NCBI RefSeq assembly: GCF_001422405.1
Contig: NZ_LMMV01000026.1
Span: 128,166 to 192,165 of the forward strand
DNA length: 64,000 nt
Direction of reading: 5' to 3'
DNA from: Pseudorhodoferax sp. Leaf267
GTDB taxonomy: Bacteria; Pseudomonadota; Gammaproteobacteria; Burkholderiales; Burkholderiaceae_C
Shown here: positions 24,934-50,307 of the stretch, in pieces
Layout of the letters: each line of letters begins with the position of its first letter
Numbering within the stretch: the first letter of the stretch is position 1
The notes under the pieces: model-generated
Databases searched by the model: none
What the model saw: only the letters and a program-made list of their open reading frames with translations
What the model was told of the DNA's origin: nothing
Program-made: the position numbers and the translations under genes

Positions 24934-27900
24934 TCAGCTCGTCGAGGGCGGCAGCGTGAACACCATGTTCGCCGCGCCGCGGAAGGTGTCGCCCTTGGGC
25001 ACCAGGAAGAACAGCCGCGTGGTATCGCCGAACACGGTTGCCGCATTGCCGCTGGCTGCGGCGCGCCCGCCGACGACGGCGCCGTAGTCGCCCTGCGCGG
25101 CCGTGAAGCTGTTGCCGGTGACGCTGACCAGCAGGCCCGCGCACATGCTCTGGATGCCCGTGAAGGTGTTGCCGTGCAGCAGCACGGTCTGGAACACGTC
25201 CCGCACCTGGCCCTGCATGAGCAGCCCCATCGTCTCCTTGCCGATGCGCAGCCGCGGCACCTGGTTCTGGCTGAACACGAACCGGCCGCGGCCCGCGCCC
25301 GGGTCGACCTGGAAGCCGCCGCCCAGCAGCCGGTCGACCACCGGGCCGATGCCGTTGTCACTGGGCTCGCCGTACAGCGCCACGTCGCCGCCGAAGCGGT
25401 TGCCCACCAGCTCGCACAGGCCGCTGATGCCCTGCAGCAGCAGCGACGCGGCCTCGGCCGCCGCGATCTCGCAGCCGGCCATGCGCAGGTCGCCCGCGCC
25501 CTCCACGCGCAACCACATGCCGCCACGCTCACCGCGCCCGGCGATCTGCAGGTTGGCCAGCCGCACGTCGGTGTTGGCCGGCAGCTGCAGCGTGGCCTCG
25601 GGGCCCATGCGCAGTGCCAGGTCGCGCAGCTCCAGCGCGGCGAAGCCGCCCAGCACGATGGGCCCCGTCACCGTGACGACGGCCGTCGGCCCGCAGCCGT
25701 GCAGCGACAGCCGCATGCCGCGCTGGCTGGCGAGCTGCAGGCCCTCCAGCGTGTGCGTGCCCGGCAGGAAGCAGATGCACAGTGCGGGCCGGTCGGCCAG
25801 CAGCTTGGCCAGCAGCTCGGTGCTGAGCACCGGGAAATCGCCGCCTTCGCCGATGGTGATCTCGCAGCCGCGCTGTCCGCCGCCGCCCGTGGCCGGCGTG
25901 AAGGCCTTGGCCGCAAACACCACCACCTGCTCGGCGATCGGGTCGCCGCCGCTGGTCAGCAGTTGCGCGCGCACGCGCTGCGCGGCCACCGTGCCCAGGC
26001 GCCAGGCGCATTCCGCCAGGCCCTGCGCGTTGCAGGCCACCACCACGCTGTTGGCGGCCGGGCTGCCGACCTGGCCGCCACCGGCCTCTACCGTGAAGCG
26101 AACGCGCGCGCCCGCCACGGGCAGCGCACCGCGCGCCACGCGCACGCGCAGCGGCTCGGCCAGGGTGCCACCGGGCGTGGTGTCCTGGCCGTCGCCGCCC
26201 ACGTAGAGCAGCTGCGTCATCTGCGTGAGCGGCGGGAAGATGTCGCGGCAGTCGCTGGTGACGCTGACCAAGCCGCCGGCATCGACCTCCACCAACCCCA
26301 GCCGGCACCAGCCATCGACGATGCCGGCGGCTTCGCGCGCCACGGGCTCGCCGTCTGCGTCGCGCGGCCATTCCACGTCGGCGCTGACGGTGCGCGCCGG
26401 GATCTGCCAGTAGTCGCCGGCCCGGTAGCTGCCGCCGGCCTCGAAGCGCACCTGCACGCCGTCCTCCAGCGTGGTCCACACGCCCTCGACGATGGGCAGC
26501 GCGTTCTCGCCGGCCACGGCGGGGCGGTGGTCCCAGCGGCGCAGCACGGGGTGGCGCGCGGCGTCCTGTCCCAGCGTGCCGGGGGGCACGCCGGCCAGCA
26601 CCAGTTCCAGCGCGTCGTCGCCGTCGTTCAGGTACTCGAACAGCTGGCCGGCGCGGCCCTGCAGCTCGGCGTCGTCGTCCACCAGCTCCACGCGGTCGTG
26701 CAGTGCCAGGTCCAGGTTCGCATCGCGCCCGCGCGCGGCCACACGCACCACGGTGCGCGAGGTGGCGGTGTCGATGCGCACCTCCTGCACGGCATAGGCC
26801 ACTGAGCCGTTCTCGCGCGACCACTTGAAGCTGGGCGTGGCGCCGCCGCTGTGGATCTCCACGCGGTAGAGCTGGTTCTCCAGCCGCCGGTAGCCGGCGC
26901 TGGCGGCGATGTCGCACAGGCCAGTGGTGGCCAGCTGCGGCTCCGAGCGCGCGGCCAGGCGCGGGCGCGGCGCCCTGGTCAGCGCGTCCCAGGGGTCGAT
27001 GGCCGAGCCGCAGTGCCACGGCGCCTCGCCCTCGCCCGGCGCCGGCAGCGCGAGCGCACGCACCTGCGCGATCTGGCGCGCGCGCGTGGCCGTGTCCGGG
27101 CCGCCCAGCGCCTGCTCGCGGATGGCGGGCGCCTCCAGCGCGCTGATGTGGCGCTGCCAGGCGCGCAGGTAGACCAGGTGCGTGCCGGCCGGCAGGCGCT
27201 CGGGCACGCCGCCGTCGGGCTGGTTGGCCAGCGAGGCCGGTGCGTCCAGTTCGCACAGCTGGCCCTGCACGTAGTAGCGGCCCGGTTGCACCAGCAGGCT
27301 GGTGGAAGGCAGCGCCACGCTCTGCGCGGCCGTGGGCGCCGCGTTGGTCAGGCGCCAGACCGGGCCCTCGCCGCCCACGGCCCAGGCCGGCTCGGTGCCC
27401 GTGACCGACAGGTTGGCCAGGTCCTGGCCGGTGCCGGTGCTGAACACGGCCCAGCTCGCGCCGCCATCGGCGCTGTGGAGCACGGTGCCGCCGTCGCCCA
27501 CGGCCCAGCCCTCGTTCGCGTCGCGAAAGCGCACGGCACGCAGCGTGGCGCCCGTGCCCGTCGCCACCGTGGCCCAGGTCGCGCCGCCGTCGGTGCTGCG
27601 CAGCGCGGTGCCGGTGTCGCCCACGGCCCAGGCGCTGCTGCCGAGCAGGGCCACGCTGCGCAGGTGTGCGGTGCTGCCGCTGTCCACGGCGGTCCAGCTC
27701 TGGCCGCCGTCGGCGCTCTGCACGATGGCGCCGCCAGGGCCGACGGCCAGGCCGCGCAGCGCATCGGCGAACACCACGCCGTGCAGGCGCGCCACGCCGC
27801 TGGTGTGCGCGGCCCAGGTTGCGCCGGCGTCGGTGGTGGCCAGCACCAGGCCGCCGTCACCCACGGCCCAGGCGCGGTTCGCGTCCAGCACGTGCACGCC

Positions 27901-28359
27901 GCGCAGGTGGGCCAGGTGGCCGGTGCTCTGCGCCGTCCAGCCCGCGCCGCCGTTGTTGGTGCGCAGCACGGTGCCGCCGTCGCCCACGGCCCAGCCCACG
28001 TTGCCCACGCGGCCCAGCGCGCGCAGGTGGCGCGTGCTGCCGGTGGGCGCCAGCGTCCACGCCGTGCCGTTGTTGGCCGTGCGCAGCAGCACGCCGTCCT
28101 CGCCGGCCACCCAGGCATTGGTCGCGTCGAAAGCCTGCACGGCCAGCGCGCGTGTGCCGGCCGTCAGCGCATAGCCCGGGTGCTCGGCCGGCGCGCCGCA
28201 AGGGCCGATCGTGTCCTCGGCCAGCCGCTCGGCTTTGTGGCGCGTGATGTCGCCCTGCTCGTTGAAGTCCGCATCGGTGATCACGCGGCCCTGCTGCATG
28301 CGCACCGCGCTGTAGCGCGCCGCGGGGTCGAAGGTCTCGCGGGAGAGGTCGCCTTTCAT
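24934..28359 (-). CDS. eCIS-associated DUF6519 protein with inserted YCF48-like propeller
   Basis: A 1141-residue particle-associated protein, last gene of the eCIS operon. Residues 1-65 are the DUF6519 N-terminus (KGDLSRETFDPAARYSAVRM, QQGRVITDADFNEQ). Residues ~72-340 hold seven ~40-residue repeats with WAVGDGGT cores, as in YCF48/HCF136 propellers. DUF6519 resumes at ~355 (PGRYYVQGQLCE, REQALGGPDTATRAR). Next come beta-rich regions, an Ig-like domain (RFTVEAGGGQVG) and a C-terminal right-handed beta-helix-like part, also with several Cys. AAGGAAGG precedes the ATG. It is most likely a surface-exposed fibre, adhesin or cargo of the particle; the role is inferred. Confidence 0.82.
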   Translation of the reverse strand: MKGDLSRETFDPAARYSAVRMQQGRVITDADFNEQGDITRHKAERLAEDTIGPCGAPAEHPGYALTAGTRALAVQAFDATNAWVAGEDGVLLRTANNGTAWTLAPTGSTRHLRALGRVGNVGWAVGDGGTVLRTNNGGAGWTAQSTGHLAHLRGVHVLDANRAWAVGDGGLVLATTDAGATWAAHTSGVARLHGVVFADALRGLAVGPGGAIVQSADGGQSWTAVDSGSTAHLRSVALLGSSAWAVGDTGTALRSTDGGATWATVATGTGATLRAVRFRDANEGWAVGDGGTVLHSADGGASWAVFSTGTGQDLANLSVTGTEPAWAVGGEGPVWRLTNAAPTAAQSVALPSTSLLVQPGRYYVQGQLCELDAPASLANQPDGGVPERLPAGTHLVYLRAWQRHISALEAPAIREQALGGPDTATRARQIAQVRALALPAPGEGEAPWHCGSAIDPWDALTRAPRPRLAARSEPQLATTGLCDIAASAGYRRLENQLYRVEIHSGGATPSFKWSRENGSVAYAVQEVRIDTATSRTVVRVAARGRDANLDLALHDRVELVDDDAELQGRAGQLFEYLNDGDDALELVLAGVPPGTLGQDAARHPVLRRWDHRPAVAGENALPIVEGVWTTLEDGVQVRFEAGGSYRAGDYWQIPARTVSADVEWPRDADGEPVAREAAGIVDGWCRLGLVEVDAGGLVSVTSDCRDIFPPLTQMTQLLYVGGDGQDTTPGGTLAEPLRVRVARGALPVAGARVRFTVEAGGGQVGSPAANSVVVACNAQGLAECAWRLGTVAAQRVRAQLLTSGGDPIAEQVVVFAAKAFTPATGGGGQRGCEITIGEGGDFPVLSTELLAKLLADRPALCICFLPGTHTLEGLQLASQRGMRLSLHGCGPTAVVTVTGPIVLGGFAALELRDLALRMGPEATLQLPANTDVRLANLQIAGRGERGGMWLRVEGAGDLRMAGCEIAAAEAASLLLQGISGLCELVGNRFGGDVALYGEPSDNGIGPVVDRLLGGGFQVDPGAGRGRFVFSQNQVPRLRIGKETMGLLMQGQVRDVFQTVLLHGNTFTGIQSMCAGLLVSVTGNSFTAAQGDYGAVVGGRAAASGNAATVFGDTTRLFFLVPKGDTFRGAANMVFTLPPSTS

Positions 28360-28387
28360 GGTCGTCCTTCCTTTCGTTCAGTGGTGA

Positions 28388-31013: not shown

Positions 31014-33977
31014 TCATAGCGTGGCCTCCACCAAATCCAGCGCCGCCGGGTTCACAAGCAACCACTCCGCCGGCAACATGCTGCGGCCCGCCACATTCCA
31101 CCGCCCACCGAACGCCGGCACGGCCTGCGCCGCAGCAGCCGCCGCAGCCCCCTCGCCAAAGGGCTGCAACACCTCCAGATCCACCGCGACCACGCCCGGC
31201 ACCTGGTGCAGCAGCGCCAGCAGCTCCGCCGCCGTCACCGACTGCCCCAGGTCGCGCGCCTCGAAGCCGAAGGCCTGCTGCACGCGAGCCGAGGCCGCCG
31301 CCAGCACGTCGGCGGCGATGTAACGCCCCTCCACCTGCACCCGCGCCACGCAGCGGAAGTAGCGCAGCACGGATGCCTTCACCACGAACGGCTGCGACGG
31401 GTCGCTCAGGTCCGCGATCGCCTGGCGCAGGTTGGCCAGCACCTCGTCGCCCGGCGCACCGCCGGTCGCGCCGGCCACCGACAGCAGCACGCGCGAGGCG
31501 CCATCGACCCAGGCCAGGTCGGCGCGCGCCTTGCCGATGCCGGGGAAGGCGCGCGCGAAGTCCTGGTAGTCGGGCAGCGAGACCACGCGCTCGAAGGCCA
31601 GAAGGGTCAGCGGCGCGTTGCGCCGCGCGTCGGCCAGCTTCTCGGGGCCCTGCGCGCCGCTGGCCGGCAGCACGTTGTCCACGCCGCGCAAGCCCAGCGG
31701 CATGGCGCGCAGCATGGTCAGCGTGTGGGCCGCCACCTCGCCGTCCGGGCCGATGCCGCTGCGGTAGCGCGCAGACACGTTCATCGTGCCGCTGGGCAGG
31801 CGCGCGCCCTGGCGGCCGTCGCCGAACAGCGCGTGCATGCGCGCGTCGTCGTCGATACGCGTGGCGTAAGCGTGCCGGTCGGGCGCAGCGCCGTGGAGCG
31901 AAGGCAGCTCGTCCCACAGCAGGCCGTTCACGCGCAGCTCCAGCGTGCTGGCCACGCCGCTGGCCGTGGCGGCCGACACATGGGTGGAGGGCGGCTTCTT
32001 GAGCACGAAGCGCTGGTGCTGCAGCGTCGCGTCACCGTTGCCCAGCACCTCGCGCACGCTCTCGCCGTGCGTGGCGTGGACCACGTTGGCGTGGATCTTC
32101 AGGCTCTCGCGCCGGTAGCCGTGCGACAGCGGCGCGCGCAGCACGAGCACGCTGCGCCCGCCGATGTGCAGCACCTCGTCGAGCACGGCGATCTCGGCCG
32201 CGTCCACGCCGGGCAGGTCGGCACGCTGGCCGGCGAAGGCCAGGCGCTGGCCGGCCACCAGGCCCAGCACCATGGCGGCCAGCTCGATGCGCGTGCTGCC
32301 GGCCGCGACGGGCGCCTCGATCGGCAGCTCGGCCAGAGGCTGGCGCCGGCTCGCCACATAGGCCGTGCTGTCGCGGAAGCGGAAGACTTCGGCCGGCGTG
32401 CCGCTCAAGGGCAGGCCGTTGCTGCCGGCCAGGCGCAGCGCCATCGCGCGGCCGGATAGGCCGTAGTCGGCGCGGGCGATCTCGCGCGCGTCGAACAGCG
32501 CATAGGTGGTCGCCTCCTCGTTCGGCGCATCGAACACCATCCAGCTGCCGGGCGACAGCCTGGGCACCGGGCGTTCGAGCACGGCATGGCAGCGCAGCCG
32601 GGCGGCGATGTTGGCGTTGCCCTGCGAATCGGTCCAGACCGTGCGCGGGTCGTCCAGCGTGTCGGGGATCGGGCTGGTGACCGGGCCGATGTCGCCCTCG
32701 TCCCAGCCCTGCGGGTAGGCGTTGCCCTTGAGGTTGCTGGTCGGCAGCGAGGCCCACCTGGGCGCGTTGTGGCCGAAGAAGCCCAGCTTCGCGCCGAACG
32801 TGAACGCGCCGGCCTCGGGCGCGACCGGCGTCGCGCCGGGCTGCACCGACGCGGCGATGGCCTGCACGAGCTGCACGGCGCTCCAGCCCTGCATGGAGAT
32901 CATGGCCTGCAGCTCGGTCTCCTGCCAGGTCTGGCTGGCCACCGTGTTGCCGATGGCGCTGGCCGTGAACGGCACGCTCGTGATCTGCGCTTGCGCGAAG
33001 CCGCTGAACGACAGCGTCATGAACGGCACCTGCCAATACAGCAGCGGCGGCGCGGCCGGCGTCACGGGGTCGGGCAGCGGCTCCAGCTCCACGCGCACGC
33101 GGCGCAGCGCGGTCTCTTCCTCCACGGCCACGGCGCGCAGCACCAGGTGCTTGAGCGTGCTGCCGTTCTTGCCGACGAACAGCAGCAGGTCGCCGGCCTG
33201 CACGCCCGTGACCTGGTCGCTGAAGTACACGCGCGCGACGTCGAGTGCGTCGACCGTGGTGTCCACGGCCAGGCCGGGGTCGAGCCGGAACAGGCCGGCA
33301 CTCGCCAGCCCCGCATGCAAGCCGGTGGTGCCGGGCGCGACGCTGCCCTCGGGGTACAGCAGCGACAGGCGCGGCGTGCCGGCCACCTCGACCAGGGCCA
33401 GGTCGGCCGGCCGCGTCTGGCGCGGCACCAGCGCGTTCCACTCGGCGCGCGCGACGAACTCCTCGCTGGTCTCGAACACCTGCGGCAGCTTGCCCTGCGG
33501 CGGCACGCTCTGCACGGGTGAGCCCGCCGCCAGCGTGCAGACGCCGGGCGCGCCGGGTGCGTCCTCCACCGTGAACACCAGGTGCACGCTGGCCGCCACG
33601 CCGGGCCGCAGCTCGTAGCCCACGGCGCGCGCCAGTTCCAGGATGGAGCGGCGCTCGGTGGCGGTGCGCAGGAAGCCCTCGTTGGCGATGCGCTCCTGGT
33701 AGAAGGTCAGCACGTCGGCCACGCAGGCCGCGGCGTCGGTGAGTGCGACGGCGGGGTCCTGCGGGTCGCGCGTGAGCAGCGCGGCGAGCGGGCGCGGTGC
33801 GGTCGTCGGCGAGCCCGGCGCGCGCCACAGCGGCAGGCTGGACAGCATGCGCTGGTAAAAGCCGGGGTGGGTGTCGATGCGCCAGGCGAGGGTGTCGAGG
33901 CCGGCGTCGTTGTGGATGACGTCGGGCGCGGCGAGGGGTTCGCAGCAGTGGCAGCCGTCGAGGGGGGTGTCGCTCAT
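31014..33977 (-). CDS. putative baseplate assembly protein, baseplate J-like (Afp12/Pvc12 type)
   Basis: A 987-residue eCIS baseplate wedge protein of the gp6/baseplate J class (a large putative baseplate assembly protein). Visible: N-terminal LTRDPQDPAVALTDAAACVA, ADVLTFYQERIANEGFLRTA typical of this class, and the C-terminal half with VSLPDYQDFARAFPGIGKAR, the conserved J-domain region. An N-terminal CHCC motif precedes the domain. The C-terminus (PGVVAVDLEVLQPF) fits the class. It probably makes a triangular wedge with the Afp11-type protein at 34120-36600. Confidence 0.85.
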   Translation of the reverse strand: MSDTPLDGCHCCEPLAAPDVIHNDAGLDTLAWRIDTHPGFYQRMLSSLPLWRAPGSPTTAPRPLAALLTRDPQDPAVALTDAAACVADVLTFYQERIANEGFLRTATERRSILELARAVGYELRPGVAASVHLVFTVEDAPGAPGVCTLAAGSPVQSVPPQGKLPQVFETSEEFVARAEWNALVPRQTRPADLALVEVAGTPRLSLLYPEGSVAPGTTGLHAGLASAGLFRLDPGLAVDTTVDALDVARVYFSDQVTGVQAGDLLLFVGKNGSTLKHLVLRAVAVEEETALRRVRVELEPLPDPVTPAAPPLLYWQVPFMTLSFSGFAQAQITSVPFTASAIGNTVASQTWQETELQAMISMQGWSAVQLVQAIAASVQPGATPVAPEAGAFTFGAKLGFFGHNAPRWASLPTSNLKGNAYPQGWDEGDIGPVTSPIPDTLDDPRTVWTDSQGNANIAARLRCHAVLERPVPRLSPGSWMVFDAPNEEATTYALFDAREIARADYGLSGRAMALRLAGSNGLPLSGTPAEVFRFRDSTAYVASRRQPLAELPIEAPVAAGSTRIELAAMVLGLVAGQRLAFAGQRADLPGVDAAEIAVLDEVLHIGGRSVLVLRAPLSHGYRRESLKIHANVVHATHGESVREVLGNGDATLQHQRFVLKKPPSTHVSAATASGVASTLELRVNGLLWDELPSLHGAAPDRHAYATRIDDDARMHALFGDGRQGARLPSGTMNVSARYRSGIGPDGEVAAHTLTMLRAMPLGLRGVDNVLPASGAQGPEKLADARRNAPLTLLAFERVVSLPDYQDFARAFPGIGKARADLAWVDGASRVLLSVAGATGGAPGDEVLANLRQAIADLSDPSQPFVVKASVLRYFRCVARVQVEGRYIAADVLAAASARVQQAFGFEARDLGQSVTAAELLALLHQVPGVVAVDLEVLQPFGEGAAAAAAAQAVPAFGGRWNVAGRSMLPAEWLLVNPAALDLVEATL

Positions 33978-36675: not shown

Positions 36676-37044
36676 TCATGGCCCCACCTCCCGCGTGAAC
36701 TCCGCACTCCCCGCCTCCTGCGTCTCCAGCACCGTGTAGCGCACCAGCACCGACAGCGTCGCGTCCTCGCTGCGCGCACTCACCTCGTCGATCTGCAGCA
36801 AATGCCCCAGCCACTGCTGCAGCGAGGCGTGCACCAGCGCCTGCACGGTCACGGCCAGCTCGGGGCTGTTCGGCGCGAACACGAGCTGCATGAGGCCGCA
36901 GCCAAAGTCGGGCCGGTTCACGCGCTCGCCGGGCACGGTGAACAGCAGCTGTTCGATGAGGCCGCGCAGATACGTATCGCGCTCGGCCTGCGCGCTGCGC
37001 CCGCGGCCATCGACGCGGTAGGGGAAAGCAAGGTGGGAAGACAT
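36676..37044 (-). CDS. gp25-like baseplate protein (GPW/gp25 family)
   Basis: A 122-residue protein of the phage T4 gp25 / Afp9 family, a lysozyme-like baseplate component that starts sheath assembly. Signatures are HLAFPYRVDGRGR, RDTYLRGLIEQLLFTVPGER (the family EPR-type core is here PGER) and NRPDFGCGLMQLVFAPNS. It is followed 3 bases later on the other side by the PAAR-like gene (37048), consistent with a particle-core operon. Confidence 0.92.
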   Translation of the reverse strand: MSSHLAFPYRVDGRGRSAQAERDTYLRGLIEQLLFTVPGERVNRPDFGCGLMQLVFAPNSPELAVTVQALVHASLQQWLGHLLQIDEVSARSEDATLSVLVRYTVLETQEAGSAEFTREVGP

Positions 37045-38033: not shown

Positions 38034-39176
38034 TCATACGGGGACTTTCGGAGTGATGGAGACGAGCCCGTTGCGCGTGAGCTCGAAGCTCTGCTTGAAC
38101 TCGCCGCGCTTGAGCGTGCTGGTCACGCTGTTCACGTAGTACAGCCCGTCGTAGGCCACGCCCACGCCGCGCACGCCGACCAGGCCTCTTGCCTTGAGCG
38201 GCCGGCCGTAGCGCAGCACGTCCAGGCTGCCCGTGCCGGTCACGGCGTCCTGCGACTTGGCGGCCTCGGCCAGGCCGGCCGAGATGGCGCGCATGGGGCT
38301 CATCTTGGCCGTGTCCTTCATGACCTTGACGTTGGCCAGCGGCGTGGGCAGCACGGCCAGTGGCGGCTGCAGCGGGTTGATGTTGGGGATCGGTATCGGG
38401 ATCGGCGCGCGCGTGAGCTGGTTCTGGATGAACACGATGGGCAGCACGCCCTTCTCGGGGTCGAACGTGAACGACAGGTTCTCCACGTTCGTCAGCGCGT
38501 CCATGTCCACGTTCAGCGCCGGCTGCGGCACGCCGATCTTGATCTCGGGGCCGAAGTAGGCGATGTTGGTGCCCACCGCCGGCCCCGGCTCCACGTAGAA
38601 CACATAGCCCACCTGGCGCGCCAGTTCCTGGATGTAGGCCAGGTCGGTGCCGCGCTGCGACGGGATCTTGTCGATGGGGATCTGCACGTCGGGGAACAGC
38701 ACCGGGATGATCATGGGGATCAGCCCGAACGGCGCGTACTTGGCGCACAGCAGCGCCACGCGGCCCTCCACCGGCACGGCCGGGAACGGCAGGCCGCTCC
38801 AGTCGATCTTGTCCATGGCGCGGGTGACGTCCTCGCCCGTCACCGTGAGGCTGCCGGGCTGGCCCTGGCTGCCGGCCTGCACCTGCACATGCGTCATCAC
38901 GCCGTCGAAGAGGGGTTGCGGCTGGCCGTTCATGGTCACGACCAGGGTCACGCGCAGCGGCGGCGTGGCGGGGCTCACGTTGCTGGCGCCGGCCAGCAGG
39001 AAGATGGTGTTGAGCTCGGAGCGGGCCGTGATCGAGAACCGGAGCTGGAAGCCCGAGGCGGCGCCGGTGGCCGTGCGCACCTCCACGCTCTCCAAGGCTT
39101 CGAGCACCACGCGCGGCACTGGGATCGGCACGATGGGGCCGATCAGCAGGGTGAGCTGGATGCCTTGAGCGAGCAT
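38034..39176 (-). CDS. hub protein, phage late-control D (gpD/VgrG-N) family
   Basis: A 380-residue protein of the phage gpD/gp27-like hub family, together with the gp5-like spike forming a VgrG split in two (both halves together match Afp8). Features: FDGVMTHVQVQAGSQGQPGS with LTVTGEDVTRAMDKIDWSG, DLAYIQELARQVGYVFYVEP and FELTRNGLVSITPKVPV at the end. It ends 10 bases before the spike gene. The hydrophobic N-terminus (LTLLIGPIVPIPVPRVV) is a beta strand, not a signal peptide. Confidence 0.87.
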   Translation of the reverse strand: MLAQGIQLTLLIGPIVPIPVPRVVLEALESVEVRTATGAASGFQLRFSITARSELNTIFLLAGASNVSPATPPLRVTLVVTMNGQPQPLFDGVMTHVQVQAGSQGQPGSLTVTGEDVTRAMDKIDWSGLPFPAVPVEGRVALLCAKYAPFGLIPMIIPVLFPDVQIPIDKIPSQRGTDLAYIQELARQVGYVFYVEPGPAVGTNIAYFGPEIKIGVPQPALNVDMDALTNVENLSFTFDPEKGVLPIVFIQNQLTRAPIPIPIPNINPLQPPLAVLPTPLANVKVMKDTAKMSPMRAISAGLAEAAKSQDAVTGTGSLDVLRYGRPLKARGLVGVRGVGVAYDGLYYVNSVTSTLKRGEFKQSFELTRNGLVSITPKVPV

Positions 39177-39719: not shown

Positions 39720-40382
39720 TCATGCGATGCCCCCGATCCCCAGCGTCGCAAAGCTCACCGGCTGCACCTTCCCCGCCAGCCGCTCCTTGCCCTGCAGATA
39801 CGTCATGAACAAGGCCCCGCCCTTGGACGCGAACCCCAGGTCGTCCACCGTCAGCACGCGCAGGCTGAACGACACCTTGGCGCGGATCGGGTTCAGCGAC
39901 GGGTCGAAGGCCTCCTCGGTGATCGAGAAGTCGGTCAGCTTCACGGGGATGATCCGCGTCTTGCCCCACACGAACAGCAGCAGCGGCGCGAGCATGGGCG
40001 CGATCTCCAGGGTGCCCGAGCCGGCCTGGCTGTCCACGCGTTGCAGCTGCGCCGACGTGGGCTGCGACAGCGCCTCCAGCACCGCCAGCTGCGGGCCGAT
40101 GCCGAAGGCCGTGGCGTTGGCGTTCTGCTCGGGGAACTCCAGCTGGTCGGTGGCGTCGATGTCGGCGTCAAAGCTGATGGTCTCCACGGCCGGGCCCTTG
40201 AAGCGCGTGGGCTCGGCGCGGTTGCCGCCGCCTTCGCCGCCGGCCTCTTGCGGCTGCAGCTTGCGTGTCAGCGTGTCGGCGTTGTATTGCAGCGAGACCA
40301 CGCGCAGCACCTGGGCCGATGCGGGGTCGACCACGACCAGGCCGCCCTTGACCAGCTTGGGGGACTGGGGAGATGTGCCCAT
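39720..40382 (-). CDS. contractile injection system tube-initiator protein (CIS_tube)
   Basis: A 220-residue protein of the CIS_tube family (Afp7 N-terminal part), which joins the inner tube to the baseplate. Features: VVVDPASAQVLRVVSLQYNA, then ETISFDADIDATDQLEFPEQ, LLLFVWGKTRIIPVKLTDFS and EAFDPSLNPIRAKVSFSLRV, all typical. The family often carries a LysM domain at the end; here LysM is encoded in the next gene (39260-39619). Upstream is the DUF4157 gene after a ~36-base gap. Confidence 0.87.
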   Translation of the reverse strand: MGTSPQSPKLVKGGLVVVDPASAQVLRVVSLQYNADTLTRKLQPQEAGGEGGGNRAEPTRFKGPAVETISFDADIDATDQLEFPEQNANATAFGIGPQLAVLEALSQPTSAQLQRVDSQAGSGTLEIAPMLAPLLLFVWGKTRIIPVKLTDFSITEEAFDPSLNPIRAKVSFSLRVLTVDDLGFASKGGALFMTYLQGKERLAGKVQPVSFATLGIGGIA

Positions 40383-40418: not shown

Positions 40419-41840
40419 TCAGGAGCACGACAGCCCGGTGTTGAGGTGGTTGGCGGCGTTGGTGCCGCGCGTCAGCCCCAGGCCCGGCAGCGCGTTGAGC
40501 CGCGCCACCAGCGGGTCGCCCGCGGCGCGCTGGTTCTGCATCATCTGCAGCCAGATCTTGAACTTCATCTCGTTGCACGCGATGCCCACGATGCGGACCT
40601 GGTGGAACAGCCGCATGCTCTCGAAGGCCGCGTCCTGCTCGGTCGTGGCGGCCAGGCCGAATTCGTGGAACAGCGGGCTGAAGGCCTCGGCCATCTGGAA
40701 CGAGCCGGGCGGGGCATTGTTCAGGGTCCACATGTCCAGGAAGTGGCGCGAGAAGCCTTCCGCGTAGATCGCCAGTTCCTCCCCGGGTGTGGCGCTGTGC
40801 GGCGACGAGCCCTGCATGGCCCAGTCGCGCAGGAAGTCCCAGGCGTGCGCGCTCTCGTGTTCGAACACCATCTGGGTGAAGTCGGGGCCGTGCGCGTTGA
40901 GCGCCTGGGGGCCGAACAGGATGAAGATCCGGATCGCGTCCGGCTGCGCAGCGTTGGTGCGGAAAGTGGCAAAGCCGAACAAGGCGTTGTTGCCGATCTT
41001 CTGGTTCAGGTTGCGGTCGTAGTTGACGTGCGTGTCGCTCAGCGTGCCCCACTCGACATAGCGGCCCGCGGCGATCGCGGCGTTGACGTTGGGCGCGGTG
41101 TTCGTCTTTTGCTCCACCGTCGCGCTGCCGCGCAACGCCTCGCCCATCATGTCGGCCACGCACTGGTTGTCGCCGCTGGCGCCCTTGGCGTTCGCCACGC
41201 GCTGGTCCCAGGGCAGGCCGGCCCAGGCCGGGTCGCATGCGCGCGCCAGGCGGTGCAGGCCGCCGCCCTGCTGCACCGTGTGGGTCAGCTCATGGGCCAG
41301 CAGGCGCCGGCCGGCATCGCTGTCGGTGCCGAACTGCCCGGCGCCGAACACGATGTGCTCGCCCACCGTGTAGGCCAGCGCATGCACCGCGCGCGCCGAC
41401 GCCGCGGCGCGCGCATCGGTGTGGATGCGCACGCGGCTGAAGTCGTGGGCATGGGGTGGTGCGCTGGTGCCGGGCGCTGCAAGCTGCAGCGGCTGGCCGC
41501 CGATGCGGGCCGCGGCCTGCTCGGCCTCCTGCTCCAGCGCTGCGCTGCTGCGGCCGGCATCCACGCGCACGCGGCCGAAGTCGTGTGCGAAGCGCGCGGA
41601 CAGCGCCGCGCTGGTGGGCGCGTCCAGCGGCTGGCCCGGCGAGGCCAGCACCTCGCCGACGATGGCGGGCCATGCGCCTGGCGCGGCCTGCGGTGTGGCG
41701 GCGCCGGGTGCGGCGCTGCGCAGCAAGGCCTCCTCGTCGCGCTCGGCCCCGCAGGCGCACTTGCGCTGCAGGAAGCCGCGCGTTGCAGCGGCAGCGGCCG
41801 GGGCGGCGGGCTGCCGGGCCAGCGGTGCGGCGCGGCTCAT
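40419..41840 (-). CDS. eCIS core metallopeptidase-like protein (DUF4157) with second HExxH domain
   Basis: A 473-residue eCIS core-domain protein. N-terminus has LQRKCACG, a motif of the family. The core has HDFGRVRVDAG and HDFSRVRIHTD (two related segments at ~86 and ~132) and the zinc-protease motif AHELTHTVQQ at ~182-191. The unusual part is the C-terminal ~250 residues with a second motif, FEHESAHAWDF (HESAH at ~328-332), followed by GEELAIYAEGF, a possible third glutamate ligand as in gluzincins. It may be a cargo protease/effector whose DUF4157 domain targets it to the tube. Metal binding is inferred. Confidence 0.85.
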   Translation of the reverse strand: MSRAAPLARQPAAPAAAAATRGFLQRKCACGAERDEEALLRSAAPGAATPQAAPGAWPAIVGEVLASPGQPLDAPTSAALSARFAHDFGRVRVDAGRSSAALEQEAEQAAARIGGQPLQLAAPGTSAPPHAHDFSRVRIHTDARAAASARAVHALAYTVGEHIVFGAGQFGTDSDAGRRLLAHELTHTVQQGGGLHRLARACDPAWAGLPWDQRVANAKGASGDNQCVADMMGEALRGSATVEQKTNTAPNVNAAIAAGRYVEWGTLSDTHVNYDRNLNQKIGNNALFGFATFRTNAAQPDAIRIFILFGPQALNAHGPDFTQMVFEHESAHAWDFLRDWAMQGSSPHSATPGEELAIYAEGFSRHFLDMWTLNNAPPGSFQMAEAFSPLFHEFGLAATTEQDAAFESMRLFHQVRIVGIACNEMKFKIWLQMMQNQRAAGDPLVARLNALPGLGLTRGTNAANHLNTGLSCS

Positions 41841-42093
41841 CGCGGTGCTCCCCGCACAATGGCGCGCGCCGCAGCCGTGCCCGCCGACACGGGCACGTGA
41901 GTGCCGGGTTCGCGCGGCGCGGCAAGCCGCTGCGAGGAGCCCGCCGCCGAGAGCTGCGCGAGGGCGCCGGGCTCGGCCAGCAACCGGCCCAGCTCTGCCT
42001 GCAGGTCGGCCTGCAGCGCGGCAGCCATGCCATCGCGTGCATCGGCATGGAAACCCTTCAGGACCAGCCGGTCCACATGCAAGACGATGCGGT

Positions 42094-42097
<4 letters not shown>
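41837..42097 (-). CDS. small eCIS-associated protein
   Basis: An 86-residue protein (RIVLHVDRLVLKGFHADARD at the N-terminus) that overlaps the ATPase stop and the DUF4157 start by 4 bases each. Short proteins beginning this way sit between the ATPase and DUF4157 genes in eCIS loci I recall; their role is not known to me. It is predicted to be helical, with an Ala/Leu-rich middle (AELGRLLAEPGALAQL). Possible chaperone or adaptor for the DUF4157 protein, by position only. Confidence 0.68.
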
Positions 42098-44004
<1,907 letters not shown>

Positions 44005-44705: not shown

Positions 44706-44882
44706 GCCCTCACCCCCGCCCTCTCCCAGGGGGAGAGGGAGTGAAGAGCGCCGCGCGGGCTGCCTGACTCCCTCGCCCCTCTGGGGAGAGGGTTGGGGTG
44801 AGGGGCGACGGCCTATGCAAGTGCCGCGCTTCATCCACCGCCGCTCGCCCTCACCCCAACCCTCTCCCGGGGGGAGAGGGGG
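44706..44882. repeat. palindromic REP-like repeats, three units
   Basis: Three copies of the eCIS-spacer palindrome (about 44706-44741, 44770-44806 in opposite orientation, 44849-44882) follow the giant inverted repeat and fill the space to the DUF4255 gene. Together with that element they make the 0.9 kb gap in the eCIS operon. Confidence 0.8.
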
Positions 44883-44905
44883 TAAGACAGGGCTGGCCCA
44901 CGCAC

Positions 44906-46246
44906 TCATGTGAACTCCACCGTCCGGTCCAGGAACCCCGGCAGTTCCGGCGGCTCGAAATCCATGTCGATGATGGGGCTGTCGACCCCGTCGATGCGCA
45001 GCCGCGCGAGGTGCACGCCGACCTGCGCATCGGGCACCACGAAGTCCAGCGAGGTCGGCGTGGCGCCCGCCACCTCGGGTGCGTACTCGCTGGCGCCCAG
45101 CACCAGCACGGCCCGCTGCCCCACGCGCAGGGCCGGCGTGAAGACGATGGTGAGCGCGGCCGAGCCATCGCCCGCGCGCCCCACCTGCTGCGGCAGGTTG
45201 GTGATCTGCGGCGCCAGCGTGAGCATGAGCGGGTTGGTCAGATGCACCTGGTCCACGCCCTGCGCATCGGGCCGCGTCACGCGGACCACCACGCGGTACA
45301 CGCCGGCCGGCAAGGCGGCCTGCTGGCCTGCCAGCGAGACGGCGGCCACGGTGGCGGCCGGGCGGTCGGGCAGCTGCTCGGCCAGCACGGGCAGCGTCAC
45401 GTCGATCTCCAGGCGGTCCTGCACCAGCCGCACGCTGCGCGCCGTGCCGTCCAGCAGGCGGCCCTGCAGCACGACCTCGTCGCCGATGGCCGCGACGGGC
45501 TGGCGCAGCGGCAACACGGCGGCCGTGAGCAGCGGCACGGCGGGCACCAGGCCTGGCTGCACGGCGATGCCGGCTTCGCGGCCCGTGACCGGGTCGACGC
45601 GGCCGCGCGTGAGCACCGGCAGCGGCGTGCGCGCGGGGCGCCGGGCCTGGATCAGCACGACCGACGCGCTGTAGGCCACGCTGGGCCGCAGGTGGCTCTG
45701 CGTGGCGGTCCACAGCTTGGACATTTCCTCGGTGTTCAGGTGCTGCGGCGTGAGCTTGATCAGCTCCACCTGGTCGGCCAGGCCCGACTCGGCCAGCGCG
45801 CGCAGGGCCGGCGGCAGGTTGGGCGCGACCACGGGCGAGGGGTTCAGCGCCGTGCGGATGGCCTCGCGCGTGAGCACTGGCATCTCGTGCAGCAGCTGCA
45901 TGGCATAGCCCAGCAGGATCTCGGCATGCAGCTCGCCGCCGCTGTAGGCCGACAGCAGGTAGTGCAGGTCCAGCGCCAGCGGCGGGTTGGTGAGCCGCGC
46001 GCGGCCGGCGCCGTCGCGGGACGGCAGGGCCTCGTTGCGCCAGCCCAGGTTGGGCGTCACGCCGTACAGGAACAGGTTGATCTGCGAGGCCTCGGGGCCG
46101 TCGGTCGGCACCACGCGGTCGGGCGCCAGCAGGCTCACGGTCACGCTGGAGCCCAGCACGCCGCTGATGTTGTGGTTGACCAGCCCGTCGTTGAGCAGGT
46201 CGCGCAGCACGGCCGTGACACCGGCGATGGCCAGGGCCGTGCTCAT
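44906..46246 (-). CDS. DUF4255 protein, tail terminator (Afp16/Pvc16 type)
   Basis: A 446-residue protein. The N-terminal DUF4255 domain (AIAGVTAVLRDLLNDGL, ASQINLFLYGVTPNLGWRNE, then LDLHYLLSAYSGGELHAEIL and LLGYAMQLLHEMPVLTREAI) caps the tube and sheath. The C-terminal ~200 residues are Ig-like beta domains (IGDEVVLQGRLLDG, LPAGVYRVVVRVTRPDAQGV), a known extension of the family. Its start overlaps the stop of the Pro/Ala-rich gene by 4 bases. In Afp the terminator sets the end of the tail. Confidence 0.92.
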   Translation of the reverse strand: MSTALAIAGVTAVLRDLLNDGLVNHNISGVLGSSVTVSLLAPDRVVPTDGPEASQINLFLYGVTPNLGWRNEALPSRDGAGRARLTNPPLALDLHYLLSAYSGGELHAEILLGYAMQLLHEMPVLTREAIRTALNPSPVVAPNLPPALRALAESGLADQVELIKLTPQHLNTEEMSKLWTATQSHLRPSVAYSASVVLIQARRPARTPLPVLTRGRVDPVTGREAGIAVQPGLVPAVPLLTAAVLPLRQPVAAIGDEVVLQGRLLDGTARSVRLVQDRLEIDVTLPVLAEQLPDRPAATVAAVSLAGQQAALPAGVYRVVVRVTRPDAQGVDQVHLTNPLMLTLAPQITNLPQQVGRAGDGSAALTIVFTPALRVGQRAVLVLGASEYAPEVAGATPTSLDFVVPDAQVGVHLARLRIDGVDSPIIDMDFEPPELPGFLDRTVEFT

Positions 46247-46992
46247 CGTGGGTCTCCACGCCTGGCGAGGTAGGCGTCCAGCGACACGGGCTGCGTGCGC
46301 TCGCGTGGGCGCGGCTTGGGCGCGGGCGCCTCGTGCAGGGCCGTCACGTCGATGCGGCCGATGTGGATGTGGACCTCGGTGTCCAGCGGCGCCGTGGGCA
46401 TCGCTGCGCCGGGGCCGCGCGGCGCAGGCGCTGGCAGCGGGGCGGCCGGTGCGCCGGGCGGGCGCGGCGCCGCGTCGGCCATGCGGGGGAGCAGCGGCGC
46501 GGGGTCTTCGCGCGCGGGCGGCCTGCGCCCGGGTGGCGCCGCTCCGGCGTGCGGAGCGCTGGCGCCGGTCGTGGGCGCTGCGGGCGCAGCCGGCGTGCCG
46601 GGCGTGGCCCGCGCCTGCACGCCCGTCGCGTGCAGCGCATGGGGCCGCTGCAAGGCCGGTGCCGCGAGCGTGTCGGGGGCCTGGGGCGGACGCGTCGTGT
46701 CGGGTGCCGGGCGCGTGGGCGATGCGCCGGGTGGGGCATCGGGCAGCACGGTGTGCGCTATGGCCGCGCCGGGGGGCGCGGTGGTCCATGGCGCCACGCC
46801 CGTGCCGGCGTCGGCCTGCGTGTGGGGCGCCGCGTGCCGGGCGGTGGCGCCGGGCCACACCGCGGGCGCGGGCTCGTGCATGGCATCGCCTTCGAATGCA
46901 GGCGCCGCGCCGAACGGCAGCCGCGCATCGGTGCGCACGGTCCACGCGGTGCCCGTGGCGCGCGCGGCCAGCCGGTGCAGCAGGCCGGTCAT
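46243..46992 (-). CDS. Pro/Ala-rich eCIS-associated protein
   Basis: A 249-residue protein, low-complexity and Pro/Ala/Thr-rich through most of its length and so probably disordered. The structured part is the C-terminal ~45 residues (VHIHIGRIDVTALHE, then RERTQPVSLDAYLARRGDPR). This C-terminal motif (VHIGRI and SLDAYLARR) is one I associate with eCIS clusters. ATG overlaps the zinc-ribbon gene stop; its own end overlaps the DUF4255 start. It may link two particle components or act in assembly; function unknown. Confidence 0.65.
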   Translation of the reverse strand: MTGLLHRLAARATGTAWTVRTDARLPFGAAPAFEGDAMHEPAPAVWPGATARHAAPHTQADAGTGVAPWTTAPPGAAIAHTVLPDAPPGASPTRPAPDTTRPPQAPDTLAAPALQRPHALHATGVQARATPGTPAAPAAPTTGASAPHAGAAPPGRRPPAREDPAPLLPRMADAAPRPPGAPAAPLPAPAPRGPGAAMPTAPLDTEVHIHIGRIDVTALHEAPAPKPRPRERTQPVSLDAYLARRGDPR

Positions 46993-47712: not shown

Positions 47713-48237
47713 TCAGGCCGGCTCGTTGAAGGTCGGCTCGGCCGGCTCGACCACGTCGTAGTCGCGTTCCCAGCCCTCGTTCTCCAGCTTCAGCGTCTGG
47801 ATCGCGATGGCGTTGGCGTTCGCGTCCAGGTCCGGCAGCGCCTGGTACTCGGACACCCAGCAGCGGAACACCTTGTAGGCGATGGCGAGCTGGCCGGCCT
47901 CGTTGTAGACCTCGATGATCAGGTCCTTGCGGAAGTCCTTGAGCGACACCTCCGCGCCCAGGCCCGAGCCGAAGTTCCACAGCTTGTTGGCCCACTTCTC
48001 GAATTCCTGGTCGTGCGTGACGCCGCGCTCCAGCGTGATGGCCTCGTACTTGGTGCGCCCGGGCGACTTGCGCGTGGTCGACGGGTCGCCGCCCTCGCGG
48101 TGCTCCACGGGCTCGGTGCTGCGCTTCAAGGCGCCGACCTTGGAGATGCCGGCCACGTAGCGGCCGTCCCACTTCACGCGGAATTTGAAGTTCTTGTAGG
48201 GGTCGAAGCGGGTGGCGTTGACGCTGAATTGGGCCAT
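47713..48237 (-). CDS. inner tube protein (T4 gp19-like, Afp1/Pvc1 type)
   Basis: A 174-residue tail-tube protein of the gp19 family that stacks as hexamers to form the inner tube. Features: RFDPYKNFKFRVKWDGRYVA with GISKVGALKRSTEPVEHREG, then KYEAITLERGVTHDQEFEKW and LDANANAIAIQTLKLENEGW. Only one tube gene is present, where Afp and PVC have two. Gap of 175 bases to the sheath gene contains a hairpin repeat. Confidence 0.93.
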   Translation of the reverse strand: MAQFSVNATRFDPYKNFKFRVKWDGRYVAGISKVGALKRSTEPVEHREGGDPSTTRKSPGRTKYEAITLERGVTHDQEFEKWANKLWNFGSGLGAEVSLKDFRKDLIIEVYNEAGQLAIAYKVFRCWVSEYQALPDLDANANAIAIQTLKLENEGWERDYDVVEPAEPTFNEPA

Positions 48238-48411: not shown

Positions 48412-50010
48412 TCATACTGGAATCTGGCCAGCCATCTGCTGGACCTTGATCACGACGAACTCCGCGGGCTTGAGCGGCGCGAAGCCCACGATCACATTCA
48501 GCACCCCCAGGTTGATGTCGGCCTGCGTCGTCGTCTGGCTGTCGCACTTCACGAAGTACGCATCGCGCGCCGACGCGCCCTGGAACGCGCCCTGGCGGAA
48601 CAGGCCCTGCATGAAGGCGCCGACGTTGAGCCGCACCTGCGCCCACAGCGGCTCGTCGTTGGGCTCGAACACGGCCCATTGCGTGCCGCGGTACAGGCTC
48701 TCCTCCAGGAACAGCGCGAGCCGGCGCACGGGCAGGTACTTGTATTCGTCGGCACTCGCGTCGGCGCCGCGCAGGGTGCGCGCGCCCCAGACCACGCGGC
48801 CGTTCACGCCCATGGAGCGCAGGCAGTTGATGCCCAGCGGGTTGAGCTGGCCGTTCTGCAGGTCGTTCAGGTTGATCTGCAGGTCCTGCACGCCGTTCAG
48901 CGACGCGTCCAGCCCGGCCGGGGCCTTCCACACGCCGCGCGCGACGTCGGTGCGCGCGATGATGCCGGCCACCACGCCGCTGGGCATGAAGGTGTCGACG
49001 CGGCTGTCGCGCAGCGGGTCGATCATGCGCAGCGCCGGGAAGTACAGCGCCGCGTTGCGCGCGGCCGGCCCGCTCAGGTTCAGGTCCAGCCGGCCGTTGC
49101 GCGCGTTGTCCAGCGCGTCGGCGATGGGGCTGGCCCAGGCCGGATCGGGGTCCACGATCAGCATCGCGCGGCGCTCCACGCACATGGCCAGCGCGGCCTG
49201 CCAGACGTCGGCGGGCACCACCGTGTAAGTGGACGGCAGCGTCGTCACGTCGCGCACCAGCGGCGGGATCACGAGCAGGTTGAACAGGTCGGCACCGGCC
49301 AGCGCATGCATGCCGGTGCGGGCCGCGGCATTGCCCAGCAGGTCGGTGTTGGCCAGGGCCGCGCCGTCGCTGCCGCCCGCGCCGGCCACCCAGTTCACCG
49401 TGCCGTCGGCGTCCACGGTGGAGGTCGGCCGCGCGGCGGGCACGTCGTCCAGCGCGCGCGCCAGGGACGACTCGCGCTCCAGCACCAGCGGCAGGTAGCG
49501 CGGGTCGGTTGCGACGGTGGAGACCGAGCTCAGCGTCTCGAACACGAACTCGTCGCGCCCGGCGCGCGGCTGGTAGCGCAGGCGCAGGTTGTAGCGCGTG
49601 TCGTCGGTATTGCCCGCGCCCAGCGCCAGGTCGGTGTCGTGGTCGACCGCGGCCGACAGGCGCCCGCCCCAGGCGCCCACGCTGGCGGCCGTGAGCACCA
49701 GGTCGTCCGCGCCGGGCAGCGTGACGGTGGCCGCCGCCGCGTCGCCGGCCGCCACGCGCACGACCAGCGCCAGCGCGCCGCCGTTGAGGTAGAAGTCGCG
49801 CACTGCGTAGCTCATGGGGCTGGCCAGCGCCAGGCCGCCGAACCGGCGTTCGTAATCGGCATAGCTGGTGAGCATCACGGCCTCGTGGGTCGGGCCGGCG
49901 GTGGCCGAGCCGACGAAGGCCGTGATCGAGGTGGCCACGCCGGTCAGCGTGCGCACGCCGCTGGGCACTTCTTCCACATAGACGCCTGGGTAACTCAGGG
50001 CACTGGGCAT
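48412..50010 (-). CDS. tail sheath protein (Afp2-4/Pvc2-4 type)
   Basis: A 532-residue contractile sheath subunit. The N-terminus YPGVYVEEVPSGVRTLTGVA and TSITAFVGSA are canonical; the C-terminus has NEPLWAQVRLNVGAFMQGLF-like order (PNDEPLWAQVRLNVGAFMQG) and QTTTQADINLGVLNVIVGFA, the handshake arms of the family. A single sheath gene is present. It is the first structural gene of the operon after the small protein at 50038. Confidence 0.95.
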   Translation of the reverse strand: MPSALSYPGVYVEEVPSGVRTLTGVATSITAFVGSATAGPTHEAVMLTSYADYERRFGGLALASPMSYAVRDFYLNGGALALVVRVAAGDAAAATVTLPGADDLVLTAASVGAWGGRLSAAVDHDTDLALGAGNTDDTRYNLRLRYQPRAGRDEFVFETLSSVSTVATDPRYLPLVLERESSLARALDDVPAARPTSTVDADGTVNWVAGAGGSDGAALANTDLLGNAAARTGMHALAGADLFNLLVIPPLVRDVTTLPSTYTVVPADVWQAALAMCVERRAMLIVDPDPAWASPIADALDNARNGRLDLNLSGPAARNAALYFPALRMIDPLRDSRVDTFMPSGVVAGIIARTDVARGVWKAPAGLDASLNGVQDLQINLNDLQNGQLNPLGINCLRSMGVNGRVVWGARTLRGADASADEYKYLPVRRLALFLEESLYRGTQWAVFEPNDEPLWAQVRLNVGAFMQGLFRQGAFQGASARDAYFVKCDSQTTTQADINLGVLNVIVGFAPLKPAEFVVIKVQQMAGQIPV

Positions 50011-50037
50011 AGAGCCTCCTTGTCAAGGGCAAACACG

Positions 50038-50307
50038 TCACGCAGCGCCACGCGGGTCGCTGCGCTGCAGGGGCCTTGCGGCGCGGTAAACGGTCTGGCC
50101 GTCCAGTCCCGACGAAAACTCCATCTCCCCGCTCGCCACGAGTTGCGCGACGGCCGCGCCGGCCACGTCGGGCCTGCAGTGCAGCCACCAGGTGCCGATA
50201 CCGGCCACGGTGTCGCAGGCGTCCGGGTGGGCCAGCAGATAGCGGCGCAGCGCCGCTGCCGTTTGCGTCACCGCATCCATGTTGTCGACCACGGCACCTG
50301 CGACCAC
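50038..50307 (-). CDS. small winged-helix-like protein, first gene of eCIS operon
   Basis: An 89-residue protein (GTG start at 50307) or 80 residues from an ATG at 50280. The helical N-terminus (AALRRYLLAHPDACDTVAGI) with a following hairpin (GTWWLHCRPDVAGAAVAQLV, then GEMEFSSGLDGQTVYR) looks like a winged helix. It starts 27-44 bases after the -24/-12 promoter, so it is the first cistron of the eCIS transcript. It may be a small DNA-binding regulator or a particle assembly factor; no named family recognised. Confidence 0.65.
   Translation of the reverse strand: MVAGAVVDNMDAVTQTAAALRRYLLAHPDACDTVAGIGTWWLHCRPDVAGAAVAQLVASGEMEFSSGLDGQTVYRAARPLQRSDPRGAA

What the first reader, a model, noticed from the sequence alone, without database searches (positions are those of the whole stretch)
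24934..50307. A complete-looking eCIS locus, transcribed as one ~25 kb minus-strand block
The sequence shows sheath, tube, DUF4255 terminator, AAA+ ATPase, DUF4157, CIS_tube, LysM, gpD hub, gp5 spike, PAAR-like tip, gp25, two baseplate J-like proteins and a tail-protein-I-like protein in one orientation, many with 4-base overlaps. This is the known gene set of extracellular contractile injection systems (Afp, PVC, MAC), not of a prophage (no capsid, terminase, integrase) or T6SS (no TssBC-type or membrane genes). Inference: it makes a secreted or cell-associated syringe-like particle.
Basis: partly seen in the sequence, partly recalled or inferred. Interest (0 to 1): 0.8.

Follow-up and report, generated by a model that had tools for sequence, protein, structure and literature searches.

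The report
Injection-machine operon with dedicated sigma-54 switch
A bacterium carries the full gene set of a syringe-like contractile injection machine, and next to it sits a candidate dedicated switch (a sigma-54 activator plus a small DNA-binding-like protein) that some relatives also carry beside another class of contractile weapon.

Summary
The eCIS locus is real: 19 minus-strand genes (24934-50292) encode sheath, tube, Pvc16 terminator, AAA+ ATPase, DUF4157 protein, CIS_tube, LysM-like, hub, spike, PAAR-like tip, gp25, two J-like wedges, a gp48-like protein and a DUF6519 (eBAP5) fibre candidate with a beta-propeller insert. Corrections: 4 of 18 gene junctions are 4-base overlaps; ORFs in several gaps translate a dispersed repeat. 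A wh84 profile finds 37 places in 34 of 399 genomes of the order: 13 within 5 kb upstream of a contractile sheath gene of the eCIS/phage type, 12 within 10 kb of a T6SS sheath gene (TssB-TssC fusion in the four checked end to end). The activators form one clade (100/100); 28 of 33 have GA[FY]TDA instead of GAFTGA. I infer a portable sigma-54 control cassette of contractile machines. It is a minority trait: 5 of 46 named related eCIS loci with visible upstream DNA have it. No sigma-54 control of eCIS appeared in the listings searched. Function is inferred, untested.

The parts
50624..51697 (-). sigma-54 enhancer-binding protein (bEBP), 357 aa: AAA+ 34-200, lid, Fis-type HTH 309-343, no receiver or other N-terminal sensor domain found; loop GAFTDA instead of GAFTGA
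   Evidence: Pfam; motifs; clade with 32 other cassette bEBPs, 100/100
50415..50534 (.). three palindromes GTGTN8ACAC (50415-50430, 50499-50514, 50519-50534): predicted enhancer sites of the bEBP
   Evidence: only three in the window, expected 0.57, 4 of 100 shuffles reach three; the genome-wide list of 60 TGTCN6SACAC matches has no other group of three within 120 bp; similar trio in L024
50336..50351 (-). -24/-12 sigma-54 site TGGCACGCTTCTCGCA
   Evidence: p=0.006 against Markov resampling; no control window of this locus as high
50038..50292 (-). wh84, small winged-helix protein (84 aa; start may be GTG 50307, GTG 50292 or ATG 50280), first gene of the operon
   Evidence: family alignment; AlphaFold2 pLDDT 86.7; winged-helix matches
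48412..50010 (-). sheath, 532 aa
   Evidence: Pfam; PDB
47713..48237 (-). tube protein (gp19 type), 174 aa
46989..47699 (-). T4_baseplate-like protein, 236 aa (weak, E 0.0017, below cut-off)
   Evidence: conserved in relatives
46243..46992 (-). Ala/Pro-rich protein, 249 aa, with a conserved C-terminal tail (about 205-246)
   Evidence: tblastn
44906..46246 (-). Pvc16_N (DUF4255) terminator, 446 aa
44005..44905 (-). not a gene: repeat-bearing gap between Pvc16 and ATPase (the 302-aa ORF 44001-44909 is judged spurious)
42094..44004 (-). AAA+ ATPase with winged-helix N-terminal domain, 636 aa
   Evidence: Walker motifs
41837..42097 (-). small conserved protein, 86 aa
   Evidence: tblastn matches in 13 of 89 loci
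40419..41840 (-). DUF4157/eCIS_core protein, 473 aa, with HELTH (183) and a second HExxH, HESAH (328); cargo candidate
39720..40382 (-). CIS_tube, 220 aa
39260..39619 (-). LysM/tail-X-like, 119 aa (weak, E 0.0087)
38034..39176 (-). hub (VgrG-like), 380 aa (weak family match; conserved in relatives)
37514..38023 (-). spike, Phage_base_V, 169 aa
37048..37368 (-). PAAR-like DUF4280 tip, 106 aa
   Evidence: E 9.3e-4, below cut-off
36676..37044 (-). gp25 wedge, 122 aa
34120..36600 (-). baseplate J-like protein 1, 826 aa
   Evidence: TIGR02243; PDB 9gtp
31014..33977 (-). baseplate J-like protein 2, 987 aa
   Evidence: TIGR02243
28388..30697 (-). gp48/tail-protein-I-like, 769 aa
   Evidence: E 3.3e-5, below cut-off
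24934..28359 (-). DUF6519 (eBAP5) tail-fibre candidate, 1141 aa, with a Ycf48/BNR beta-propeller insert (about 75-345); the stretch is far shorter in the five relatives where both flanks align
   Evidence: eBAP5 = DUF6519 in PMC12923769

Best explanation
The window holds an apparently intact contractile injection system of eCIS type in a probable betaproteobacterium, and it is switched on by its own sigma-54 activator. Shown: the structural gene set; the adjacent activator gene; a -24/-12 element and three palindromes between it and the operon; RpoN in the same genome; the same activator-wh84-promoter arrangement before eCIS in other genera and phyla. Inferred: the activator, which lacks a sensor domain, binds the palindromes and remodels sigma-54 RNA polymerase at the -24/-12 site, so that wh84 and the machine are made together; wh84, a winged-helix protein made from that promoter, acts in trans on the activator or its sites (co-activator or brake, as PspA or HrpV do for other sensor-less activators, recalled). 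The particle binds a target through the DUF6519/propeller fibre and delivers the DUF4157 double-HExxH protein as candidate cargo.
For: Gene set. Activator. Promoter and palindromes. wh84 family. Test: the wh84 profile finds 37 places in 34 of 399 genomes, own genome included; activator upstream in 25 of 30 fetched, 22 of 26 after dropping the window, two seed loci and one at a contig edge. Context of the 37: 13 sheath within 5 kb downstream, 3 sheath within 50 kb, 12 T6SS within 10 kb, 9 neither. In the 46 named eCIS loci with 2.5 kb or more before the sheath, the five with a clade activator all have wh84; the two with another activator do not. -24/-12 score of 21 or more within 150 nt upstream of wh84 in 10 of 10 scored of the 13 sheath-adjacent loci, against 1.5% of 3376 control windows; in 9 of 9 wh84 loci the best site lies 47-81 nt upstream. 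Activator clade 100/100 against 11 paralogues of the own genome and 2 others. RpoN.
Against: No expression data. The cassette is a minority trait: 5 of 46 such named loci; the closest ATPase relatives (L070, L072, L073; also L077) have no activator hit and no site above chance. The loop is GAFTDA, not GAFTGA; in VfmH of Dickeya this variant gave no sigma-54 pull-down (PMC10714721), though DVU2106 with GAFTDA has a reported regulon (PMC4641369). Only 3 of 9 T6SS-side and 3 of 7 orphan loci have the site upstream of wh84; in L170 9% of its own control windows score as high. Unanchored whole-window scans for the site found no excess. Nine of 37 wh84 loci are near neither machine, and two of the 37 are marginal matches (6.3e-4, 9.2e-4). 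wh84 is rare outside the order: 4 further genomes of 398, activator beside one of these 4. L135 has wh84 without an activator hit. Promoter score weights were set by me from the recalled consensus.
Confidence: 0.7

Rival explanations
1. An ordinary eCIS: the neighbouring activator and small protein are chance neighbours or control something else.
For: 41 of 46 named related loci with visible upstream DNA lack the cassette; 9 of 37 wh84 places stand apart from either machine.
Against: wh84 and activator are linked in 25 of 30 loci; one activator clade at 100/100; -24/-12 sites in 10 of 10 scored sheath-adjacent loci against 1.5% of controls; the three palindromes are grouped like this nowhere else in the genome list.
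Confidence: 0.17
2. The machine is not released but works inside or from the cell, as in Streptomyces (cytoplasmic) or haloarchaea (membrane-bound, T6SS-like).
For: Sheath and J-like proteins are closest among solved structures to the haloarchaeal and S. coelicolor systems; no tape-measure protein was recognised, as reported for Streptomyces. Seven proteins reach 19-residue hydropathy of 1.6 to 1.8 (Pvc16, hub, DUF6519, sheath, both J-like, ATPase), so a membrane contact is not excluded.
Against: No segment above 1.81 was found in the simple hydropathy scan, and a DUF6519/eBAP5 fibre candidate is present, while the two Streptomyces clusters described lack a conventional fibre gene.
Confidence: 0.35
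3. A defective prophage or tailocin remnant.
For: Sheath, tube, spike and J-like proteins have PHROG tail matches.
Against: eCIS-type Pvc16_N, eCIS_core and CIS_tube; all 671 phage sheath matches below 60% identity; no capsid, terminase or integrase family among the window proteins scanned.
Confidence: 0.02

Closest known systems
Streptomyces coelicolor CIS (IId; PDB 8BKY, 8BL4; PMC10066040, passages read)
   Same: Sheath similar over its full length (1.5e-69); J-like protein similar to 9gtp (2.8e-9; that 9gtp is of the same system is inferred from its shared sheath sequence); no recognised Afp14 tape measure
   Different: Here a DUF6519/eBAP5 fibre candidate and the sigma-54 cassette; the S. 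coelicolor cluster has no Cis10 PAAR protein and its particles are cytoplasmic
Haloarchaeal T6SS-like CIS (PDB 9EZM; PMC11566945, passages read)
   Same: Best-scoring solved sheath (1.2e-69); no tape-measure homologue
   Different: Bound to the cytoplasmic membrane; genes in two subclusters
Sigma-54 activators of T6SS (VasH, Sfa2; review PMC10482370, passages read)
   Same: Activator working with RpoN on a contractile machine
   Different: Here before an eCIS, no sensor domain, GA[FY]TDA loop in 28 of 33, paired with a small winged-helix protein; no sequence comparison with VasH or Sfa2 was made
GerE, BTAD and RfaH regulators of eCIS (PMC8213781, passages read)
   Same: Regulator genes next to eCIS operons
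   Different: None of these is a sigma-54 activator; the word sigma does not occur in that paper's main text
eBAP5 (DUF6519) eCIS fibres (PMC12923769, passages read)
   Same: DUF6519 marks baseplate-anchored fibre proteins
   Different: This one has a six-repeat Ycf48/BNR propeller inserted near its N-terminus; the passages seen mention propellers for eBAP3

Membership tests
eCIS | sheath, tube, Pvc16, AAA+ ATPase, eCIS_core, CIS_tube, spike, gp25 and J-like genes in one cluster | tested here: met
eCIS | no phage head genes and no T6SS membrane or TssB/TssC genes in the cluster | tested here: met
   Pfam scans of the cluster proteins and some flanking ones; PHROG scan of ten; the own genome's only VipB match lies on another contig
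eCIS | particle is released and acts outside the producing cell | not testable with these tools
   needs microscopy and fractionation
eCIS subtype IId | sheath nearest to IId members | tested here: inconclusive
   Streptomyces CIS among the best solved matches and Streptomyces loci among the 80 ATPase relatives kept; no tree with dbeCIS reference sequences was made
sigma-54 enhancer-binding proteins | Sigma54_activat AAA+ domain with Walker A and B, and Fis-type HTH | tested here: met
sigma-54 enhancer-binding proteins | GAFTGA loop or a working variant | tested here: inconclusive
   GAFTDA; variant with a reported regulon in DVU2106, doubtful in VfmH
sigma-54 promoters | GG and GC doublets ten bases apart in a -24/-12 element upstream of the regulated gene | tested here: met
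   activity itself not tested. 21 of 21 collected sites keep GG and GC, but they were picked by score
T6SS | TssB/TssC sheath | tested here: not met
   sheath is Phage_sheath_1/1C; no VipB match on the window's contig

The most novel reading that the evidence does not exclude
A sensor-less sigma-54 activator, mostly with a GA[FY]TDA loop, and a small winged-helix partner form a portable control cassette of contractile injection machines: it drives a subset of eCIS in several lineages (also the different two-sheath eCIS-like locus of the genus mates) and was passed once, within the sampled tree, to T6SS clusters of the fused TssB-TssC kind, so that two machine classes share one switch.
Probability: 0.55. 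Interest if true: 0.7.

Novelty: new variant of a known kind. Interest (0 to 1): 0.52.

Why it matters
When and why bacteria build eCIS particles is poorly understood; GerE, BTAD and RfaH are the regulators named in the survey passages read here. A candidate dedicated sigma-54 switch with predicted promoter and binding sites makes the question directly testable, would link eCIS regulation to that of a T6SS class, and gives a sequence tag (wh84) for finding more.

Tried and rejected
Rejected as genes: ORFs 30694-31017, 33974-34123 and 44001-44909, which look coupled by ATGA overlaps but largely translate repeats.

Rejected as the same activator: the bEBPs beside eCIS in two Desulfobacterales loci (L099, L118) fall among ordinary activators and have no wh84 hit; probably a separate recruitment.

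Led nowhere: PADLOC gave only AAA+ matches (IetA, TRIP13) for the ATPase among the cluster proteins scanned; PDB sequence searches of hub, gp48-like and T4_baseplate-like proteins found nothing at the thresholds used; Foldseek of the wh84 model gave no match at E 0.001 or better, and the second look gave only the general winged-helix fold; unanchored scans for -24/-12 sites were below chance, 25 against 38 expected and 76 against 85, so the site counts only through position and conservation. The 249-aa and 86-aa proteins stay without a named family.

Not settled: the organism's name. That it is betaproteobacterial is inferred from one same-order genome (G207) whose activator piece is identical to that of a named Betaproteobacteria MAG (L090). 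The DUF4157 protein's C-terminal part has only a weak Peptidase_M91 match (0.019).

Selection effects: the nine wh84 seeds came from eCIS loci, eight of them with an activator upstream; counts without seeds are given. L193 (a paralogue) was dropped from the tree because its matched piece was 41 aa. L153 was left out of promoter scoring (contig edge), L034 out of the ATPase alignment. VipB was searched only in the 34 genomes with wh84.

Corrected on checking: an earlier reading that L122 lacks wh84 (single-sequence search) was wrong; the profile finds it (1.8e-13).
Full report
What is there. The window is G000:C26:128166-192165 of a 6.53 Mb genome in 27 contigs, 65-76% G+C in 2-kb steps. ORF listing and a codon-based gene finder give 19 minus-strand genes from 50292 down to 24934, and Pfam and NCBIfam name most of them as eCIS parts. 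The sheath is nearest to solved sheaths 9ezm (1.2e-69), 8bky (1.5e-69) and 8bl4; 8BKY and 8BL4 are the S. coelicolor CIS (passage of PMC10066040), and 9EZM is named in the haloarchaeal T6SS paper (PMC11566945; search listing, passages). Against phages the top-ranked sheath match is 29.5% identical, and none of 671 matching records reaches 60%.

What needs correcting. Of 18 junctions between the 19 genes, 4 are 4-base overlaps (46989/46992, 46243/46246, 42094/42097, 41837/41840). Six gaps hold copies of a palindromic repeat; ORFs there translate repeats. CCCTCACCCCNNCCCTCTCCC occurs 66 times in the genome and not in the reversed control; 11 of the 66 are inside this operon. One continuous transcript is plausible, not shown.

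Fibre and cargo. The last gene (1141 aa) carries DUF6519 (4.4e-77), called eBAP5 in PMC12923769, a baseplate-anchoring domain of eCIS fibres (passages). A Ycf48/BNR propeller (six repeats at DNA level) sits between residues about 75 and 345; in the five relatives with both flanks aligned (L023, L025, L029, L094, L112) the stretch is far shorter; a sixth, L027, aligned on one side only. The DUF4157 protein has HELTH at 183 and HESAH at 328, the latter in a region with only a weak Peptidase_M91 match (0.019). It is a cargo candidate by analogy with PMC8213781; nothing here shows that it is delivered.

The control region. Upstream, on the same strand, lies a 357-aa activator with a sigma-54 AAA+ domain and Fis-type HTH but no sensor domain found. 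Between it and the operon are three GTGTN8ACAC palindromes, the only ones in the 64 kb (expected 0.57; 4 of 100 shuffles reach three). A genome search with TGTCN6SACAC lists 60 matches (25 for the reversed control), with no other group of three within 120 bp. Downstream of them is TGGCACGCTTCTCGCA, 60 nt before the assumed start of wh84, the 84-aa first gene (p=0.006). RpoN is encoded in the genome (PF04552, 5.5e-65). A locus in another genus of the family (L024) has the same kind of promoter and three similar palindromes, the first two also 20 bp apart.

Conservation test. A genome-contig scan with the ATPase alignment kept 80 named loci. Among these and nine longer stretches from other genomes, tblastn found an activator in 11 of 89. 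In 17 loci then examined by phmmer, activators were seen in 11 and wh84 in 8 besides the window. In nine wh84 loci including the window the best -24/-12 site lies 47-81 nt upstream of the assumed start, p 0.016 or less each; four activator-less loci (L070, L072, L073, L077) have none (p 0.28-0.88); of four loci scored from the sheath instead, L022 and L099 have a site (p 0.05, 0.008) and L122 and L118 do not (0.16, 0.81). Base rate: of the 80 named loci, 46 show 2.5 kb or more before the sheath; 7 of these 46 have an activator hit, 6 have wh84 by profile (L090, L098, L116, L122, L125, L135); the five activators of the clade all go with wh84, the two outside it (L099, L118) do not. So the cassette is a minority trait of this machine.

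A profile from nine wh84 sequences matched 34 of 399 genomes of the order, 37 places, the window included. Thirty were fetched: 25 have the activator upstream on the same strand. By position, 13 of 37 are within 5 kb upstream of a Phage_sheath_1C gene on the same strand, 3 within 50 kb of one, 12 within 10 kb of a T6SS VipB (one of these divergent, one 6.9 kb away), 9 near neither, some of these on short contigs. The 12 belong to a long-ORF class (634-851 aa open frames). TssB-TssC fusion was shown by Pfam in one (L181) and by end-to-end alignment in three more (L180, L182, L185); a fifth (L186) matched residues 4-442, close to the end of the fetched stretch. Of 33 VipB places in these 34 genomes, 14 are of this class and 12 have wh84; none of the other 19 has. 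Promoter scores: 10 of 10 scored sheath-adjacent loci (of 13; the window and two seeds among them), 2 of 3 far, 3 of 7 orphan and 3 of 9 T6SS loci reach 21 within 150 nt upstream, against 1.5% of 3376 control windows; for L170 alone 9% of its controls do. In several T6SS loci a -24/-12-like site lies instead in the gap after wh84, without a control.

The activators as a family. The 32 cassette activators besides the window's score 237.9 bits or more against it; the 12 own-genome paralogues score 223.6 or less. In a tree of 46 rows, 33 cassette activators form one side of a branch with 100/100 support against 11 paralogues and the two Desulfobacterales activators. The nine T6SS-side activators sampled (of 12 places), with two orphans, form a set at 100/99 lying among eCIS ones, one change by parsimony; the forks just around it are weaker (81/85, 83/75), and the root is by midpoint, so the direction is an inference. 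In the loop 28 of 33 have GA[FY]TDA, 2 GAFTTA (identical rows), and one each GAYTSA, GAYTHA and GAYTGA; among paralogues and the two others, one has GAFTDA. Such variants are listed as compatible with activity in D. vulgaris (PMC4641369), with a doubt from VfmH (PMC10714721).

Spread. In a phylum-wide sample wh84 is in 5 of 398 genomes including the own, with the activator beside it in one of the other four. Genus mates carry wh84 (4 of 4 tested; a fifth, G004, in L028) with a different two-sheath eCIS-like locus, so the cassette is kept while the machine differs.

Literature. Searches pairing contractile injection system with sigma-54, enhancer binding protein, sigma54 and RpoN returned no paper whose listing concerns sigma-54 control of eCIS; for, 15 of 41 papers were listed. 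The word sigma does not occur in the main text of five eCIS papers searched for it; in PMC10066040 it occurs five times, in the passages seen as a supplier's name or a reference to another sigma factor. Subscription papers and preprints are not held, so absence is limited to this library.

Noticed in passing
window 21978-23414 (+), next ORF 23418-24089 (+): AAA_21 ATPase matching PADLOC's HEC-01A at 3.5e-201, followed by a 223-aa ORF that was not scanned: a candidate anti-phage defence pair just downstream of the eCIS operon.
   Followed up: partly
window 30782-44886: Dispersed palindromic repeat, 66 exact pattern matches in the genome of which 11 lie in the eCIS operon; three more lie at C1:86562-86732, about 5 kb from the genome's own T6SS VipB match (C1:91314). 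Why it gathers there is unexplained.
   Followed up: partly
L183 (G080:C2): Activator and wh84 with a good -24/-12 site stand before a papain-family protease and a peptidoglycan-binding protein; that genome's sheath match is on another contig.
   Followed up: partly
L099, L118: Desulfobacterales eCIS loci have a different sigma-54 activator upstream, apparently recruited independently.
   Followed up: partly
L135 (Dyella subtropica): wh84 profile match (8e-13) upstream of an eCIS sheath without an activator hit in the fetched stretch.
   Followed up: no
window 54448-55329 (+): Beta-lactamase-family gene (Beta-lactamase2, 5e-42).
   Followed up: no
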